From contig OY288107.1 of NCBI GenBank assembly GCA_958431225.1, forward strand, positions 1,205,501-1,269,500: 64,000 bases of DNA, written 5' to 3'. Origin of the DNA: an uncultured Alphaproteobacteria bacterium. GTDB taxonomy: Bacteria; Pseudomonadota; Alphaproteobacteria; Puniceispirillales; UBA1172. Shown piece after piece: positions 7,529 to 56,427 of this stretch. The translations under genes and the position numbers were made by a program. Under the pieces are notes generated by a model. It had not been told where the DNA came from, did no database searches, and was given only the letters and a program-made list of their open reading frames with translations. Position 1 is the stretch's first letter; each line of letters opens with the position of its first letter.

Positions 7529-10500
7529 TTAAGCTGGCTTAGTGGTATCAATAGCATCGCTACAAGTAATGACTATCTTGATGCCGCTGTCCCCATCATC
7601 GGTAGGCATATCATGTACGAGCACCCAAACAGACCCAGAATTCTGATCAAGCCAGTATAAATCGGCATCTTGCTTCTTAAAGAAATCAAATTTGTCCGTA
7701 GCCGTTACACTCTGGGCAGGATTATTGTTTACCGTCACTCCTGTGACCGTCCCAACAGAGCGCATACGCAGATAGACCTTTCCTTTATAGTCATAATTCT
7801 TGTCCTTGTAGTCATAGTATAATTTGTATGTCGCTGACTTTGGATCAGGACTGCTTCCATCGGCATTGGCTAATTTCAAAACAGCATACTGACCCGAATC
7901 CTTTAAACCACCATCATCAAGATACACCACGCCATCCCCAACGGAACCCGTGGTCTCGCGCGAGAAAATGTCAAACACCAAAGGATCATCATCGGTATAT
8001 GCAGATATTGCTTTGACACTATTATCATAACTGTATCGCGTTGGAATTTTTGAACCTTTTCGTATGAGAACATACATCGTTCCCTGATGGATGTTTATAA
8101 GGTCCTCGTCAGCCCCGCCCTTCATATATGTTTCAAATTTTATATCATCTGAAAACGGCGTATAGCCGAACCAATCTGCCCCGCTGGGCAAATGGACGGA
8201 CTTATTTGTGTCACCTTCATTGATGATTGGCGCGGGCATAATCTCGTTATTGTTACCAAGAAAGAATTGGCTATTTAACCAAGGCTTAGTGTCCAAATCG
8301 TCAACCGTTAGATTGCTCAAATCTAGAAGCGAACGGATCATCGGTGTGCCTTCTGTAGCATATACCCAAGCCGCCGTATAAAGGACTTCTTGCCACCGAT
8401 AACGCATCTTAACAGCCGCCCCCATAGCCTCGGTGTAAGTCATATCTGTGTCTGCAATGATTGTTTTATTATAATAGTCACCATAGAGTTCTTGATATTG
8501 TTTGCCATGACCTTTGGGTTGCCACTTAGTCGGATCGTCTGAAGTTGATGGATCTTTTTCAATCCAGCGGTCATAGTGATCACGAAACCACGGCAATAGG
8601 CATCCAGCCTGCACAAAACGTGCCAAAAGTTCTGCCGATGGAAAAGATCCTGGTCCAGGGGCTGGACCCGCCGAATCTGCTTGTGCAAATCCGCCAGTTT
8701 CAGGGCCTCCTTCGCCAAAACCCGCCACCGATGAATCGCCTTGTGCAAATCCGCCAATATCTGCTCCAACCATTGACATGCCGGACATATTCATGCTGAT
8801 AATCATTGGAATCATCAATTTTAGATATGGCCAACTTGATTGGTTATCGCCCATCCACATGCCACCAAAATGCTGAGAGCCAATTTGCCCCCCACGACCA
8901 ATAATATAACTGCGCTTGCGATTTCTTGCATCAGCATTCTTTAGAATGCCCTCATTATAGGTCGCCCAACAAAGAAGGTAGGCATGTTGATTGCGAACAT
9001 GATTAAAGGTATTTTGAAGAAGGGGATTTTGAGGAGTAGTTCCATAGCGAGGATCAGATAGATATACTTGCATATGATACGAGCGCCAATTGAAATTTGA
9101 ACCAATAGCGGGATCTGTTCTCGCTCCGTCAGCGTCGTAAGTGGAGTCGTCAATTTTGTTACCTCTAGTGTGGGTTTGCATAGACGGGGTGGTCATATCT
9201 TGCCAGACGAAATCTAACCCTTCTGTAAACAAGTCGTGATAATTTCCTCCCCACCATTCAGCCGTCGACATCGTTTGGTCTGTTTTTGGCCTTATCCAAT
9301 CAGGGAAAATGGCGGTGATATTAGCACTTTGGCCGTAAGAAAGTTGGGCACAATAAGCATCGGAGGGACCAAAGCCATCGTTATTAAAGTCTTTGCCATC
9401 AGCCGCCGTGTTATTGACATAGGCTTTGTTTTTTTTGATGCCTGCATACGCTGGATAATCATCACCATCTGAATCTTTAATAAAACAGGTGATATTGGTT
9501 TGGGTCACTAATCCATTTTGGTGGGCCCATTTAAAAATACTATCGCCGTCTTTATCTGCGCCAATACGGAAGCGATCATTAATCGTGAACACCTTGTAAG
9601 TGTCTTGCACATCAACATCAACCGCGAATCCTTCAAGGGGAATCTTGGCGTCTTTATATCCCTCCATGATATCCTCAAAAAAAATGTCGTTGTTGTTAGA
9701 CGGGAATTTTTTGTTGTCATAATCCTCCCTACGAATACCAGATGCGCCATAAACACCTTGAAAAAAGCCGAGAGCATATTTTGGGGGAAGCGCAGCATGG
9801 GAAACGGCTTTGCCCGCACTGTCTCTCTGGGCGCAAAGATAGGACAAGCCCTTAACCGTACTATCGACCGATGCAAGATCATCACCACCAATGGCATAAA
9901 AGTCTATCTGACCAGACTGCGCGCCTAAATAAAACGTTTCGGCATTACCAACATCAGGACCAAATGCCGTATCGCCTGTATTAGTATAAGTCTGTGATTG
10001 GTTGTTGAGGAAAAACCCGCAAGCCACCTGCTGATCCGACCCACGATTTCTACTAGAAATAATCCATGGGGCTGAAAAATACATCGGATAATAATAGTCG
10101 GGTATTTGACGCGCAGGGTCCGAAGACTTATAAGCTGTTGGAAGCAATTCATCATGATGATAGAGGATTTGGTCATAATTAAAATTTGTCATTGAAAGAC
10201 CTGTCTTGTTAAGGACATAATCACCATCCTTGCCGCCAGAGTTAACATTAACTTGGCCTTGTCCATAAAACCTTTCCAAGGCACCGGGATGATCTTTGTC
10301 ATTCTTGAACGCTAAAGCAAAAGCGCGCCCATAAGCCCTGTCAACAAAAGTAATGGCTAAAGAATGTCCATTTGAATCTTGTGCGCTTGCGTGCACGACA
10401 GTTTGCGTGTCTGCTACTCTAGCCACTATGTTGAACGACTCATCAATAGAAACTTCCAAATTCTTGGTTCTCAGCGTAATGGATTTCTTATCGCTACCGA

Positions 10501-10900
10501 GAGTAAAAACATCCGCTGGCGCACTTTCTTGATTAATTTCATAGGTTTTTATCGCAGCAAGATTGGCTTCTGTGATAGGGCCAAAAGTATAGTCAATTGG
10601 TGAAATCTTATGATTGTGAGGACCTTCGGCAGGATTGTAACGAATTCTATATATATTGTGCGTATACGAAACACATTGAATTATAAGAGCACCTGGACTT
10701 CCGACGTGCTTCACATCTCTATGATATACTGCGGCATCAAAGGTTGCTACCCAACTGTTATCTTTATCCACAGTTATACCGTAGTTTCCCCCAACATAAA
10801 ACCAGTTCGTCTTACTTAACGGGGTAAATTTGTCTACGGGAATGTAGCTGTAAATCTCTGGGGCCGTATCTTGGTCGGTAGTAATTTCATTCGGTGACAT
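7529..10900 (-). CDS. GH31 alpha-1,4-glucan lyase-like protein
   Basis: A 1123-residue GH31 protein. The sequence follows the algal/fungal alpha-1,4-glucan lyases (which release 1,5-anhydro-D-fructose from starch or glycogen by elimination) closely along its length: TPLSKTNWF near the N-terminus, LGFFQGVYG, EGFAVDVDVQD, LVTQTNITCFI, GLDFVWQDMTTPSM, HFGGMWMGDN, VQAGCLLPWFRDHYDRW, MRYRWQEVLYTA. The catalytic nucleophile is Asp568 in WQDMT, where the lyases also have WQDMT and hydrolases usually have an M-N/W-E type ending. Asp685 in MGDN is the second catalytic position. There is no signal peptide, so it should act in the cytosol, for instance on glycogen. Residues about 712-752 form a Gly/Ala/Pro-rich loop not expected in the family. 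The Shine-Dalgarno GGAGAG precedes the ATG. The alternative is an atypical alpha-glucosidase. Confidence 0.85.
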   Translation of the reverse strand: MSPNEITTDQDTAPEIYSYIPVDKFTPLSKTNWFYVGGNYGITVDKDNSWVATFDAAVYHRDVKHVGSPGALIIQCVSYTHNIYRIRYNPAEGPHNHKISPIDYTFGPITEANLAAIKTYEINQESAPADVFTLGSDKKSITLRTKNLEVSIDESFNIVARVADTQTVVHASAQDSNGHSLAITFVDRAYGRAFALAFKNDKDHPGALERFYGQGQVNVNSGGKDGDYVLNKTGLSMTNFNYDQILYHHDELLPTAYKSSDPARQIPDYYYPMYFSAPWIISSRNRGSDQQVACGFFLNNQSQTYTNTGDTAFGPDVGNAETFYLGAQSGQIDFYAIGGDDLASVDSTVKGLSYLCAQRDSAGKAVSHAALPPKYALGFFQGVYGASGIRREDYDNKKFPSNNNDIFFEDIMEGYKDAKIPLEGFAVDVDVQDTYKVFTINDRFRIGADKDGDSIFKWAHQNGLVTQTNITCFIKDSDGDDYPAYAGIKKNKAYVNNTAADGKDFNNDGFGPSDAYCAQLSYGQSANITAIFPDWIRPKTDQTMSTAEWWGGNYHDLFTEGLDFVWQDMTTPSMQTHTRGNKIDDSTYDADGARTDPAIGSNFNWRSYHMQVYLSDPRYGTTPQNPLLQNTFNHVRNQHAYLLCWATYNEGILKNADARNRKRSYIIGRGGQIGSQHFGGMWMGDNQSSWPYLKLMIPMIISMNMSGMSMVGADIGGFAQGDSSVAGFGEGGPETGGFAQADSAGPAPGPGSFPSAELLARFVQAGCLLPWFRDHYDRWIEKDPSTSDDPTKWQPKGHGKQYQELYGDYYNKTIIADTDMTYTEAMGAAVKMRYRWQEVLYTAAWVYATEGTPMIRSLLDLSNLTVDDLDTKPWLNSQFFLGNNNEIMPAPIINEGDTNKSVHLPSGADWFGYTPFSDDIKFETYMKGGADEDLINIHQGTMYVLIRKGSKIPTRYSYDNSVKAISAYTDDDPLVFDIFSRETTGSVGDGVVYLDDGGLKDSGQYAVLKLANADGSSPDPKSATYKLYYDYKDKNYDYKGKVYLRMRSVGTVTGVTVNNNPAQSVTATDKFDFFKKQDADLYWLDQNSGSVWVLVHDMPTDDGDSGIKIVITCSDAIDTTKPA

Positions 10901-51801: not shown

Positions 51802-52776
51802 TCAGCGTTCCTTTATATAGGCTTGCCCGATGGCGCCGGGCGGGGTGGCTCGTCCTATAAAACCTGCTAATAGAATCACTGTCAATACATAAGGCAGTGC
51901 CAGAATCAAATCCGTAGGGATGGCACCTAGCCCGATGATTTCCACGCCTTGCAGACGTGCGGCGATGGCTTCAAGAAAGCCGAACATCAAACACGCAAAC
52001 AAGGCGGGAAGCGGGCGCCAATGCCCGAAAATCATCGCCGCTAATGCGATATAGCCCTTGCCGGCGGTCATCTCGCGGACGAATCCAGCCCCATGCGCAA
52101 CCGACAAATACGCCCCGGCAATGCCGCACAACACGCCGGCGATTAACACGGCTTGATAGCGTATGCGCACGACGCTGACGCCGGCGGTATCCACGGCTTC
52201 GGGTTTCTCGCCGGCGGCACGGAGGCGCAAGCCGAAACTCGTGCGGTAAAGCACAAAGCCCGTCACTGCCACCGCCAACAGAGCCAGCCACACCAACAGA
52301 TTATGCCCGGAAATCACCTCCGCATAAATCGTGCCGATGATGGGAATTGCGCGCGCGCTTTCGGCAAAGGGTAGGGTGATGTCGCTAAAACGGGCTTGTG
52401 CGGTGAGGTAGGGGGTCTGCCCGCCTTGGGCAAACAGCGCGATGCCAAGGGTGATGGTTAAACCCGATGCCAGAATGTTAATCGCCAACCCCGAAATCAC
52501 CTGATTGCCGCGATGGGTGATGGAGGCAAACCCATGCAGGAGGCTGAACAGCATGGACGTTAAAATCGCCGTAGATAATGCCAAAAACGGCGCGCCATAA
52601 AGCGCGGCAACACTGGCGGCGGCGAAGGCACTCAATAACATTTTGCCCTCAAGCGCAATATCAATAATGCCCGCACGTTCGGAAAATATCCCCGCCATCG
52701 CGCATAGAATCAGCGGCGTCGCCACGCGCAAAGTTGCATCCAAAACTAGCAGGGATTGAAGCCAAAGCTCAGCCAT
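51802..52776 (-). CDS. Nucleoside ABC transporter permease 2
   Basis: A 324-residue membrane permease of the BmpA-type nucleoside importers (NupQ/YufQ-like), with about eight helices and the motif AGIIDIALEGKMLLSAFAA near residue 35. It overlaps the first permease gene by 8 bp. It works with permease 1, the ATPase and the BMP binding protein. Confidence 0.9.
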   Translation of the reverse strand: MAELWLQSLLVLDATLRVATPLILCAMAGIFSERAGIIDIALEGKMLLSAFAAASVAALYGAPFLALSTAILTSMLFSLLHGFASITHRGNQVISGLAINILASGLTITLGIALFAQGGQTPYLTAQARFSDITLPFAESARAIPIIGTIYAEVISGHNLLVWLALLAVAVTGFVLYRTSFGLRLRAAGEKPEAVDTAGVSVVRIRYQAVLIAGVLCGIAGAYLSVAHGAGFVREMTAGKGYIALAAMIFGHWRPLPALFACLMFGFLEAIAARLQGVEIIGLGAIPTDLILALPYVLTVILLAGFIGRATPPGAIGQAYIKER

Positions 52777-53884
52777 GCGGTGCCTCCCCTTTACGGCTTT
52801 TGATGTAATAATAAAACCGTTCCATCATGGGATGAAACATCAATGCCAATGCGCCTGAAAATAAAATGATTAAACCTTGAATCATCAGCACCATCTCGCG
52901 GGTGATGGTTTGGAATTCAAAATCAATTTCCGCCCCGCCTTGATAGAGCGCACCGAACAAAAGACTCGCCAGCAAAATGCCGAAAGGATGGTTGCGCCCC
53001 ATCAACGCCACCGCAATCCCCGTAAAGCCATAGCCGGCAGTAAAATTCAAAACCACCCGCCCCTGCACCCCCAAAATTTCGTTGGTCGCCATCAGCCCGG
53101 CTAACCCGCCCGAGATTGCCATGGTGATGATGATGGTTTTTTGCGGGTTATAGCCGGCGTAAATCGCCGCTTTCTCGCTATGCCCGGTGGCGCGGATGAT
53201 ATAGCCGAGCCGCGTCCGCCAGATGAGCACCCAGACGCCAATCAACGCGGCAATCCCAATAAAGAACGACAGATTCAACGGCGAGCGCGCCATCGGAATT
53301 CCCAGCGCCCCGGCTATGTGATGGATTTGTGCTAGATGTACGCCCTCGGCAAAACGGCTCGTTTCCGGCGACATCTGCCCCGGTGCCATCAACATCCCTG
53401 CCAACAGCCACACCATAATAGAGGCAGCGATGAAATTAAACATGATGGTGGTGATGACGATATGGCTCCCGCGTTTGGCTTGGAGCCAGCCGGGGATGCT
53501 CCCCCAAGCCGCCCCAAACCCCGCCGCTATCGGCACAGCCAGCATCACCACCAATAAAGGCGGCAGAACCCCACCAAGCCCCAACGCCACAAACCCAATA
53601 CCCAGCCCGCCCATCAACGCCTGTCCCTCACCGCCGATATTGAACAGCATAGCATGAAACGCCACCGCCACGGCGAGACCAGTGAAAATAAAATTGGTGG
53701 TATAAAAGAGCGTATAACCAAGCGCGCCTTTATAGATAAACGCGCCCTTGACCATCACCGCCAACACACGAAAAGGATTCTCGCCAATCGCCGCAATAAT
53801 CAACCCCGCCACAAAAAACGCCGCCAGAATATTGATAATCGGCATGACAAAAATATCCATCCATGAAGGCAGAGGCAACCGCAT
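52769..53884 (-). CDS. Nucleoside ABC transporter permease 1
   Basis: A 371-residue permease (NupP/YufP-like) with the family motif FNIGGEGQALMGGLG and GSHIVITTIMFNFIA. ATG 53884 lies at TGATG, overlapping the stop of the 13-codon leader. Before the island inserted, the same TGATG was the end of the ATPase gene. A GTG three bases upstream is the other possible start. The ATG at 53884 sits inside the left 19-bp repeat. Confidence 0.9.
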   Translation of the reverse strand: MRLPLPSWMDIFVMPIINILAAFFVAGLIIAAIGENPFRVLAVMVKGAFIYKGALGYTLFYTTNFIFTGLAVAVAFHAMLFNIGGEGQALMGGLGIGFVALGLGGVLPPLLVVMLAVPIAAGFGAAWGSIPGWLQAKRGSHIVITTIMFNFIAASIMVWLLAGMLMAPGQMSPETSRFAEGVHLAQIHHIAGALGIPMARSPLNLSFFIGIAALIGVWVLIWRTRLGYIIRATGHSEKAAIYAGYNPQKTIIITMAISGGLAGLMATNEILGVQGRVVLNFTAGYGFTGIAVALMGRNHPFGILLASLLFGALYQGGAEIDFEFQTITREMVLMIQGLIILFSGALALMFHPMMERFYYYIKSRKGEAPHG

Positions 53885-53901
53885 CACGCCACCCCTGCCA
53901 T
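53883..53901. repeat. 19-bp direct repeat, left copy
   Basis: ATCACGCCACCCCTGCCAT, identical to 54870-54888. It contains the permease start codon. Flanking bases differ at both ends, so the repeat is exactly 19 bp. Confidence 0.9.
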
Positions 53902-53925
53902 GTGATTTAGGAGTAGTTTTGTCAT
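53884..53925 (-). CDS. 13-codon leader ORF at the island end
   Basis: MTKLLLNHMAGVA: ATG at 53925, stop TGA at 53886-53884, overlapping the permease ATG as TGATG. A Shine-Dalgarno GAGG lies 8 bp upstream (53934-53937). The last five codons come from the 19-bp repeat and equal the C-terminus of the ATPase (MAGVA). It looks like a coupling leader that keeps the downstream permease translated despite the insertion. Translation is not proven. Confidence 0.5.
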   Translation of the reverse strand: MTKLLLNHMAGVA

Positions 53926-53957
53926 AGAAATTTCCTCGTGGTGCATAAACTGAAGCG

Positions 53958-53986
53958 ATTTTAAGGGGATTTGGGTTTTAATGCAA
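53958..53986 (-). promoter_or_regulatory. Possible outward promoter toward the permease genes
   Basis: On the minus strand TTGCAT (53986-53981) and TAAAAT (53963-53958) are 17 bp apart and lie upstream of the 13-codon leader. The -35 box is weak. If active, it would drive the two permeases and cdd from inside the island. Confidence 0.35.
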
Positions 53987-54006
53987 ATTGTTCGTTTTGT
54001 AGTTGC

Positions 54007-54034
54007 TTGACTTTAACTGATACTTTCGTATAAT
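54007..54034 (+). promoter_or_regulatory. Promoter of the island genes
   Basis: TTGACT (54007-54012), 16-bp spacer, TATAAT (54029-54034), about 35 bp before the first island gene. A strong sigma70-type match. Confidence 0.65.
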
Positions 54035-54068
54035 TGGGGGTTCGCTTATTTAATTTAAGGGGACAAAA

Positions 54069-54461
54069 ATGGAAAACGCTTGGAATAATTTTAGCGAAGA
54101 AAATCTACTCGAGAGTAGAAAACAAATTCTAATTCAAGTTAAGGGGCATCCAGAGCGAACGTTGGCATTGCGACTTGGTCTGAAAGCAAAAAATAAAAAA
54201 GTTGAAGTGAAATTGATCCAGCCACTTGGGAAAAAGTTATTTCGAATTAATTTTGTAGATTACGCAATCTTTGGCAAAGTTGTGTTGATGTATGACCCAA
54301 AAAATAAAATATACTATGCCAAAACTTTCTATAATTTGAGAAGCAATTGGTTTCTTACAGTAAAAAAAGCGACAGGCTTCGATGAATCTTACATAAAAAA
54401 CAATATGGAACTATCTTTGGAACAACTTGTAGATTGTCATCAAAAAATTGCGGGTTATTGA
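54069..54461 (+). CDS. Island gene 1, unknown 130-residue protein
   Basis: Not recognised. A basic, lysine-rich protein of 130 residues with a Shine-Dalgarno AAGGGG before the ATG. Hydrophobic strands alternate with charged ones (VEVKLIQPLGKKLFRINFV, then VVLMYDPKNKIYYAKTFYN), suggesting a small alpha/beta fold without membrane helices. AT-rich codons unlike all neighbours point to horizontal origin. First gene of the island, 41 bp before gene 2. A defence, toxin-antitoxin or nucleic-acid-binding role is possible but unsupported. Confidence 0.7.
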   Translation: MENAWNNFSEENLLESRKQILIQVKGHPERTLALRLGLKAKNKKVEVKLIQPLGKKLFRINFVDYAIFGKVVLMYDPKNKIYYAKTFYNLRSNWFLTVKKATGFDESYIKNNMELSLEQLVDCHQKIAGY

Positions 54462-54502
54462 CCAGAAGCAATTGCTTTGTTTTTAACTGAAGGGAGGCGA
54501 AC

Positions 54503-54754
54503 ATGGGCGGAGAGAAAATAAAAGAGGATGAGAAAGAGTGGAATTGCTTTGGATTGCTAAGCGATGTTTGTATTAAAGGTCACCGTATTGTTATCACAAA
54601 TGATAATAATAAAAAAAGAACGATGAGCAAAAAAGGGTTTTCACCAGAGCATTGGAAAAAGGTGAAGGATAAGGTGACTAAATTTAAAGATAGGTGTGTT
54701 AAAGTAGAAACAACCACAAAAATGGTCTCTGGATCATCAGGAGATGGCGATTAG
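54503..54754 (+). CDS. Island gene 2, unknown 83-residue protein with possible read-through
   Basis: Not recognised. A Lys/Glu-rich 83-residue protein (KKGFSPEHWKKVKDKVTKFKDRC) with a good Shine-Dalgarno GGGAGG. After the TAG stop (54752-54754) the same frame stays open for 31 codons to a TGA at 54848-54850. That extension ends CDSESCDGESCDC, an acidic Cys-rich tail encoded by three 15-bp near-repeats. Either the TAG is a recent nonsense mutation in a 115-codon gene, or it is read through, or the tail is chance. AT-rich like gene 1. Confidence 0.6.
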   Translation: MGGEKIKEDEKEWNCFGLLSDVCIKGHRIVITNDNNKKRTMSKKGFSPEHWKKVKDKVTKFKDRCVKVETTTKMVSGSSGDGD

Positions 54755-54869
54755 TCAGCAGAAGATCCCTTTTGGCCATCAAAAGACTGGTTTAGTGATA
54801 TTGAGTTATGCGACAGTGAATCGTGCGACGGTGAATCATGCGATTGCTGAATGAGTGTAGAGCCGTTTT

Positions 54870-54888
54870 ATCACGCCACCCCTGCCAT
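54870..54888. repeat. 19-bp direct repeat, right copy
   Basis: Identical to 53883-53901. It contains the last codons and stop of the ABC ATPase gene (minus strand ATGGCAGGGGTGGCGTGAT). Confidence 0.9.
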
Positions 54889-56427
54889 TAATAAACCGAT
54901 TTTTTGTAGATTGGTTTTGGTGCGTGATTCTATGCCCATGACGCGGCCTTCTGCCATGACCATGATGCGGTCGGATAGGCTCATGATTTCGTCTAGTTCT
55001 ACCGATACTAGAATAATCGCCGCCCCCCTATCGCGCATGGTGATTAGTTGTTGGTGGATGAAGGCGATGGCGCCTATATCTACCCCCCTTGTTGGTTGCC
55101 CTACTAATAGCACATCCCCGGCACCTGACATTTCGCGTGCTAACACTAATTTTTGTTGATTGCCTCCGGAAAATTGGCTGGATATTAGGTCGGGATTTGG
55201 GGGGCGCACGTCAAATTCTTTCATTAAATTCGCGCAATTTTGGCGCATGATTTTGGGTGTTAGTACGCCGTTATTACACGCTAGATTTTCATAGCCTAGC
55301 ATGGCGTTTTCGGCGGCGCTGAATGGTAGGATTATGCCGGCGGCGTGGCGGTCTTCGGGTGTGTGGGCGACGCCTAGTTTTTTTATGTCTTTGGGGGTGG
55401 CGGGGTTTTTTGCGTTTATGATGTGATTGTGGTAGCGGATTGAGCCGCCACTTGGGGGGCGGATGCCTGCTAATAATTCTAGCAATTCTGATTGTCCGTT
55501 TCCTGCTACCCCGGCTACGCCTAGAATTTCGCCCGCATGCACGGAAAAATTGGTGGGGGCTAATAGGGGTTTGTCGCCTTCGCCTTTAAGCGTGAGGTCT
55601 TTGACTTCTACCACTGCCGCGCCTTTATCCGTGCGATGCCAGCGCGATTCTACCAATACTTCGCGCCCCACCATAATCTGTGCTAGTTGCGGGGGGGAGG
55701 TTTTTTTTGTGTCTAAATCCGCCACCATTGCCCCGGCGCGCATCACCGAAACGCGGTCGGTTATCGCCATGATCTCGCGCAATTTATGGGTGATGAGCAA
55801 GATGGTTACGCCCTGTTTTTTGAGCGTGCGGAGAATGTCAAATAACTGATGGGTCTCTTGGGGGGTTAGTACGCCGGTGGGTTCGTCTAGGATGAGGATG
55901 CTGGCTTGGCGGTAGAGGGCTTTCAAAATTTCAACCTTTTGTTGCAGGCTCACCGGCAGCGCCCCCGCCTTGGCATCAAGGTCAAGTGCTAAGCCTAATT
56001 GTGCGGCTAAACCCGTGAGGGTTTTTCGGGCTTCTGCTGTATGGGCGCGCAGATTCTGCCCGCCCTCTGCCCCTAGAATGACATTTTCAAGCACCGAGAA
56101 ATTTGGCACGAGCATAAAATGTTGATGCACCATGCCGATGCCCATAGCGATAGCGTCCGCTGTGCTTTTGCTGTTAAAACGCTTGCCGTTGATGTTGATG
56201 CACCCGCTATCGGCGGTATAAAAGCCGTAAAGGATGGACATGAGCGTGGATTTGCCCGCCCCATTTTCGCCGACAATGCCGTGAATTTCCCCCGCGCGAA
56301 TCGCTAAATCCACGTCCTTATTGGCTTGCACCAAGCCGAAACGTTTATTGATTCCCGCCATGGTGACGGCAAAATTCTTGCCAGAATTCGTGCGGGGTTT
56401 AGATGCTGTTTTTGCCGTCATTGCCAC
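54871..56427 (-). CDS. Nucleoside ABC transporter ATP-binding protein (two ABC domains)
   Basis: A 518-residue double ATPase (NupO/YufO-like). Domain 1: Walker A GENGAGKST at about residues 55-63, and Walker B ILILDEPTGVLTPQE, with a degenerate signature. Domain 2: SGGNQQKLVLAREMSGAGDVLLVGQPTRGVD, where Walker A is replaced (GVAGNGQSELL), as is usual for this family's second half. The C-terminal MAGVA is encoded by the right 19-bp repeat. Between the BMP gene and the island. Confidence 0.93.
   Translation of the reverse strand: MAMTAKTASKPRTNSGKNFAVTMAGINKRFGLVQANKDVDLAIRAGEIHGIVGENGAGKSTLMSILYGFYTADSGCININGKRFNSKSTADAIAMGIGMVHQHFMLVPNFSVLENVILGAEGGQNLRAHTAEARKTLTGLAAQLGLALDLDAKAGALPVSLQQKVEILKALYRQASILILDEPTGVLTPQETHQLFDILRTLKKQGVTILLITHKLREIMAITDRVSVMRAGAMVADLDTKKTSPPQLAQIMVGREVLVESRWHRTDKGAAVVEVKDLTLKGEGDKPLLAPTNFSVHAGEILGVAGVAGNGQSELLELLAGIRPPSGGSIRYHNHIINAKNPATPKDIKKLGVAHTPEDRHAAGIILPFSAAENAMLGYENLACNNGVLTPKIMRQNCANLMKEFDVRPPNPDLISSQFSGGNQQKLVLAREMSGAGDVLLVGQPTRGVDIGAIAFIHQQLITMRDRGAAIILVSVELDEIMSLSDRIMVMAEGRVMGIESRTKTNLQKIGLLMAGVA

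What the first reader, a model, noticed from the sequence alone, without database searches (positions are those of the whole stretch)
53883..54888. AT-rich 1-kb insertion in a nucleoside ABC operon, flanked by an exact 19-bp direct repeat
ATCACGCCACCCCTGCCAT occurs at 53883-53901 and 54870-54888. Deleting one copy with the 968 bp between them recreates a TGATG overlap of ATPase stop and permease start, the ancestral operon. The island carries two unknown genes and its own promoter. It encodes no recombinase. That combination (long exact duplication, tiny cargo, no enzyme) does not match common insertion sequences. It may be an undescribed non-autonomous mobile unit or a minimal integrative cassette.
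Basis: partly seen in the sequence, partly recalled or inferred. Interest (0 to 1): 0.72.

Follow-up and report, generated by a model that had tools for sequence, protein, structure and literature searches.

The report
Orphan two-gene insertion splitting ABC operon
A 1-kb stretch of foreign-looking DNA with two small unknown genes was inserted, once and apparently recently, between two overlapping transporter genes, copying 19 bases of the target so that both host genes still work; it is a real insertion of an ordinary kind, with no sign of being an active new mobile element.

Summary
ATCACGCCACCCCTGCCAT lies at 53883-53901 and 54870-54888, exact and nowhere else in the 2.33-Mb genome, enclosing 968 bp at 36% GC against 52% around it. 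In all 18 other genomes where the gene pair was found, including six of the same genus, ATPase and permease are adjacent with no insert; within the family they overlap as TGATG or TAATG, the junction obtained here by removing one repeat and the island. So this is a derived, single-lineage insertion with a 19-bp target duplication. The duplication carries the ATPase stop, the permease ribosome-binding site and nearly all of its start codon, which is what both genes need to survive. Both cargo proteins are orphans: no match in family libraries, phages, plasmids, viral contigs or the alphaproteobacterial genomes searched. Against an undescribed mobile unit: single copy, no terminal inverted repeats, no attC, no recombinase, no other occupied or repeated site, no comparable island in a 464-kb sample. 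Best reading: a one-off illegitimate insertion of AT-rich, probably phage- or plasmid-derived DNA, kept because the duplication makes it nearly neutral. Short segments flanked by direct repeats under 30 bp are an ordinary class of bacterial variable segment. The mechanism remains inferred.

The parts
53883..53901 (-). Permease-side copy of the 19-bp direct repeat; on the - strand ATGGCAGGGGTGGCGTGAT, carrying the GGGG ribosome-binding site and the first two bases of the permease ATG (53884-53882)
54870..54888 (-). ATPase-side copy of the repeat: last five ATPase codons (MAGVA), stop codon TGA, and T
53902..54869 (.). Inserted island, 968 bp, 36% GC
   Evidence: absent from all 18 relatives that have the gene pair
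54007..54034 (+). Sigma-70-like promoter TTGACT-16-TATAAT (11 of 12) for the island genes; consensus match only
54069..54461 (+). Gene 1, 130-aa orphan protein; the ORF is as long as or longer than the longest in 99% of shuffled islands; GC by codon position 43/27/30%
   Evidence: no relatives
54503..54754 (+). Gene 2, 83-aa orphan protein ending in TAG; low-confidence beta-beta-beta-alpha core in a single-sequence model
   Evidence: no relatives
54755..54850 (+). Open continuation of the gene 2 frame after the TAG (31 codons, then TGA); possible ancestral C-terminus lost to a nonsense mutation, or chance
   Evidence: open in 8% of shuffles
53884..53946 (-). 20-aa leader ORF at the island edge (ATG 53946; inner ATG 53925 with AGGA ribosome-binding site, MTKLLLNHMAGVA) that runs through the repeat and overlaps the permease start as TGATG
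52769..53884 (-). Host permease gene (Pfam BPD_transp_2), downstream of the insertion
54871..56427 (-). Host ABC ATPase gene (two ABC_tran domains), upstream of the insertion; its 3' end is intact

Best explanation
A single, lineage-specific illegitimate insertion of about 1 kb of AT-rich foreign DNA, probably phage or plasmid derived, at the overlapping stop/start junction of a sugar/nucleoside-type ABC ATPase and its permease, with duplication of 19 bp of target. Shown: the insertion, the empty ancestral site, the exact duplication, the orphan cargo, single copy. Inferred: a staggered break or template switch was filled in so that 19 bp were copied on both sides. The insertion survived because the duplicated stretch contains the last ATPase codons and stop as well as the permease ribosome-binding site and the AT of its start codon, so neither gene was damaged. 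The length of the repeat then reflects a selection filter on the host genes rather than the signature of an enzyme. At the permease side the island adds a ribosome-binding site and short reading frame ending in the TGATG overlap, which would keep the permease translationally coupled. The island genes are transcribed from their own promoter in the opposite direction and are best regarded as passenger or phage-interaction genes; gene 2 may already be truncated.
For: Empty junction in six same-genus, four same-family and eight further same-order genomes. Exact repeat found nowhere else in the genome. Single copy, no homologous DNA in the genome. No relatives of gene 1 in 136 order and 385 class genomes, or of gene 2 in 136 order genomes. 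No terminal inverted repeats, attC or recombinase. In 464 kb of the genome no other exact repeat of 15 bp or more encloses a low-GC segment of this kind; the others lie in repetitive or paralogous genes. A leader ORF with ribosome-binding site is rare by chance, 0.3-0.8% (post hoc). Published precedent: 10-18% of small variable segments are flanked by direct repeats, mostly under 30 bp, attributed to illegitimate recombination (PMC2884548).
Against: A perfect 19-bp duplication is long for an event without an enzyme, and the mechanism was not tested. Both cargo genes have their own promoter and look intact enough to be a unit, which a random fragment need not be. The host encodes several tyrosine recombinases that could act in trans. 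Strains of the same species could not be compared.
Confidence: 0.6

Rival explanations
1. Site-specific integration: the 19 bp is an att core at the 3' end of the ATPase gene, and the island is a minimal element moved by a tyrosine recombinase or phage integrase acting in trans, so that attL and attR restore the target gene.
For: The insertion restores the 3' end of a conserved gene and is flanked by one perfect direct repeat, as att sites are. The genome has nine tyrosine-recombinase matches. A recombinase-less island with direct repeats has been reported to excise in E. coli (PMC3191183, PMC5426353).
Against: No second element or repeat copy in the genome. The junction is empty in every other species, so it is no integration hotspot. 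No inverted-repeat arms at the island ends.
Confidence: 0.15
2. Decayed remnant: a larger element such as a prophage, plasmid or IS integrated here and lost its recombinase by internal deletion, leaving two cargo genes between the original end repeats.
For: AT-rich orphan genes with a strong promoter suit phage or plasmid cargo; gene 2 has an in-frame TAG followed by 31 open codons, as if truncated.
Against: No recognisable phage, plasmid or IS protein fragment; no terminal inverted repeats; no longer relative at the site in any species.
Confidence: 0.15
3. Undescribed non-autonomous mobile unit: the island moves as a defined unit and makes 19-bp target duplications.
For: Exact ends, exact duplication, compact cargo with its own promoter.
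Against: One copy, no homologue in any searched collection, no conserved ends.
Confidence: 0.07

Closest known systems
Small variable segments (microdiversity loci) flanked by short direct repeats, Touzain et al. 2010 (PMC2884548)
   Same: Short segment absent from relatives, matching no known mobile element, flanked by a direct repeat under 30 bp, genes at the boundary kept
   Different: Those were defined among strains of one species, with many of the repeat cases read as possible deletions; here the comparison is between species and the outgroups show an insertion
Insertion with long target duplication (Nobusato et al. 2000, described in PMC3031569 and PMC1643837)
   Same: Insertion of a small gene unit with a direct duplication of target sequence, seen by comparison with a related genome
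   Different: Frequently restriction-modification genes with long and variable duplications; here orphan cargo without restriction-modification matches and 19 bp
H47 genomic island of E. coli (PMC3191183, PMC5426353)
   Same: Small island between direct repeats that encodes no recombinase
   Different: 13 kb with long imperfect repeats (146/8 bp, 77% identity), excision detected by PCR; no excision evidence here

Membership tests
Small variable segment with flanking short direct repeats | Segment absent from related genomes with conserved flanks | tested here: met
Small variable segment with flanking short direct repeats | Direct repeat of at least 5 and mostly under 30 bp at the borders | tested here: met
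   19 bp
Small variable segment with flanking short direct repeats | Variable among strains of one species | not testable with these tools
   one genome per species is held
Insertion with long target duplication | Target sequence present once in the empty site and twice around the insert | tested here: met
Insertion with long target duplication | Restriction-modification cargo (frequent association) | tested here: inconclusive
   no family match of any kind for either protein
Insertion sequence or MITE | Terminal inverted repeats | tested here: not met
Insertion sequence or MITE | Transposase, or several copies per genome | tested here: not met
Integrative element with att sites | Own integrase | tested here: not met
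Integrative element with att sites | Excision between the repeats | not testable with these tools
   needs cells or sequencing reads
Integron gene cassette | attC site with RYYYAAC/GTTRRRY cores | tested here: not met
Toxin-antitoxin or defence pair | Match to a known family | tested here: inconclusive
   no match in PADLOC, Pfam or NCBIfam

The most novel reading that the evidence does not exclude
A minimal two-gene cassette without a recombinase that is integrated precisely, with a fixed 19-bp duplication, by host or phage machinery acting in trans, and that carries its own ribosome-binding site and leader at one end so that it can land inside overlapping operon genes without polar damage.
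Probability: 0.06. Interest if true: 0.6.

Novelty: new member of a known kind. Interest (0 to 1): 0.22.

Why it matters
It is a clean example of how foreign genes can enter the middle of a tightly overlapping operon without breaking it: the duplicated bases are those that both neighbouring genes need. If more cases with such end structures were found, the leader at the island edge would point to a real unit; as it stands it mainly shows that short-repeat insertions need no dedicated element.

Tried and rejected
Weak matches of gene 1 in two order relatives were rejected: one reads through six stop codons across a region of ordinary conserved genes, the other lies inside a conserved 238-aa gene. 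Weak gene 2 matches (E 0.02-0.09) lie mostly in long unrelated frames. Structure models without alignments: gene 1 is unusable (pLDDT 39.5); gene 2 has a tentative beta-beta-beta-alpha core (pLDDT about 67-73 over residues 21-60), and the fold searches gave nothing significant (no Foldseek E below 0.2, best VIA Z 4.6). Other repeat-flanked low-GC candidates in the 464-kb sample were paralogous or repetitive genes. Rfam gave no credible RNA and ARAGORN no tRNA. Integron cassette rejected for lack of attC cores. The whole genome was not available as a file, so the search for sister islands was made on about 20% of it.

Full report
Check of the observation. The sequence ATCACGCCACCCCTGCCAT occurs exactly at 53883-53901 and 54870-54888. 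With up to three mismatches there is no third match in the window and shuffles never give two; no other exact copy exists in the 2,325,691-base genome. Identity stops at 19 bp on both sides. The interval of 968 bp is 36.0% GC against 52% for the window and for a 464-kb sample of the genome. It is the lowest-GC stretch of the window.

Ancestral state. The permease was searched in 30 relatives; it was found in 18 of them, and in every one the ATPase gene lies directly upstream. In the six genomes of the same genus and in four of the same family the stop of the ATPase and the start of the permease overlap as TGATG or TAATG after a conserved block that encodes MAGV; in the more distant ones the genes are separated by no more than roughly a hundred bases. 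Joining the two flanks of the window gives ATGGCAGGGGTGGCGTGATGCGG, the same kind of junction. No relative carries an insert. Outgroups being empty, the event is an insertion in this lineage and not a deletion elsewhere.

What the repeat contains. On the coding (minus) strand it reads ATG GCA GGG GTG GCG TGA T. It holds the last five ATPase codons, the stop, the GGGG ribosome-binding site and the first two bases of the permease ATG. An insertion at this overlap without duplication would either cut the end of the ATPase or separate the permease from its ribosome-binding site. A duplication of about this length leaves both intact. I infer that selection on the host genes, as much as any enzyme, sets the length that we see. 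This is an argument from the sequence, not a test.

The island edge. Next to the permease the island has, on the minus strand, GAGGAAATTTCT ATG ACA AAA CTA CTC CTA AAT CAC, followed in frame by the repeat up to TGATG: a short frame MTKLLLNHMAGVA with its own ribosome-binding site, ending in the permease start. A frame of this kind with a ribosome-binding site arises in 0.25% of shuffled edges and at 0.8% of positions slid through the island; the test was made after seeing it. It could be an adaptation that keeps the permease translationally coupled, or the start of a donor gene that was divergent from gene 1.

The cargo. Gene 1 (130 aa) is as long as or longer than the longest ORF in 99% of shuffled islands and has a coding-like GC pattern over the codon positions; gene 2 (83 aa) is less certain by length. 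A promoter-like site matching 11 of 12 lies about 35 bases ahead of gene 1. Neither protein matches Pfam, NCBIfam, PHROGs, PADLOC or PDB sequences credibly, nor phage or plasmid records, viral contigs or genome contigs. Gene 1 has no credible relative in 136 genomes of the order or 385 of the class, gene 2 none in 136 of the order. Gene 2 stops at TAG, after which its frame is open for 31 codons ending in a cysteine-rich acidic tail; 8% of shuffles do as well, so a truncated gene is possible but unproven.

Mobile element tests. There are no terminal inverted repeats and no attC cores, no recombinase, no second copy of the island or of either gene in the genome, and no other insertion at the junction in any relative. 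Nine tyrosine-recombinase matches exist in the genome, so action in trans cannot be excluded. In 464 kb (the window plus 20 stretches of 20 kb) no other exact repeat of 15 bp or more encloses a low-GC unique segment; the candidates were repetitive or paralogous genes.

Comparison with the known. Touzain et al. (PMC2884548) found that 10-18% of small variable segments are flanked by direct repeats, most of them under 30 bp, and suggest illegitimate recombination for a large fraction of such diversity. Nobusato et al. (cited in PMC3031569 and PMC1643837) described insertion with long target duplication, frequently of restriction-modification genes. The H47 island (PMC3191183, PMC5426353) is a recombinase-less island between direct repeats with PCR-detected excision. 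The present case falls within this range. The finding is real and well described, but the step to an undescribed mobile unit is not supported.

Limits. One genome per species is held, so polymorphism within the species was not seen. Metagenomes could not be scanned. The insertion mechanism and the function of the two proteins are inferred.

Noticed in passing
L067:10192-13569 (genome G000:C1 about 196.2-199.6 kb): A 1125-aa Cas13a (NCBIfam cas13A_C2c2, E 8e-209; PADLOC Cas13a, E 7e-199) next to a CRISPR-like array of at least 11 units with a period of 66 bases at L067:9394-10155: a type VI-A system outside the window.
   Followed up: partly
L067:6777-9376 and L068:8683-11256: A pair of adjacent tyrosine recombinase genes beside the Cas13a locus is present twice, 94% identical over 2.6 kb, with further partial copies and repeated neighbours; possibly a multi-recombinase mobile element.
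   Followed up: partly
L040:3929-6775: Two adjacent AT-rich paralogous genes with pentapeptide-like repeats (434 and 508 aa) next to a recombinase and a 4045-aa RTX-like repeat protein.
   Followed up: no
window 7529-10900: A 1123-aa protein on the minus strand, apparently a glycoside hydrolase of alpha-glucosidase type judged by eye, AT-richer at its 5' end than its surroundings.
   Followed up: no
L046:8356-17207: Many dispersed copies of GC-rich palindromic repeats (ATGGGGGCAAGCCCCCA, CGCGGCGGGGCGTTCCCCGCT), resembling a REP-like intergenic repeat family.
   Followed up: no
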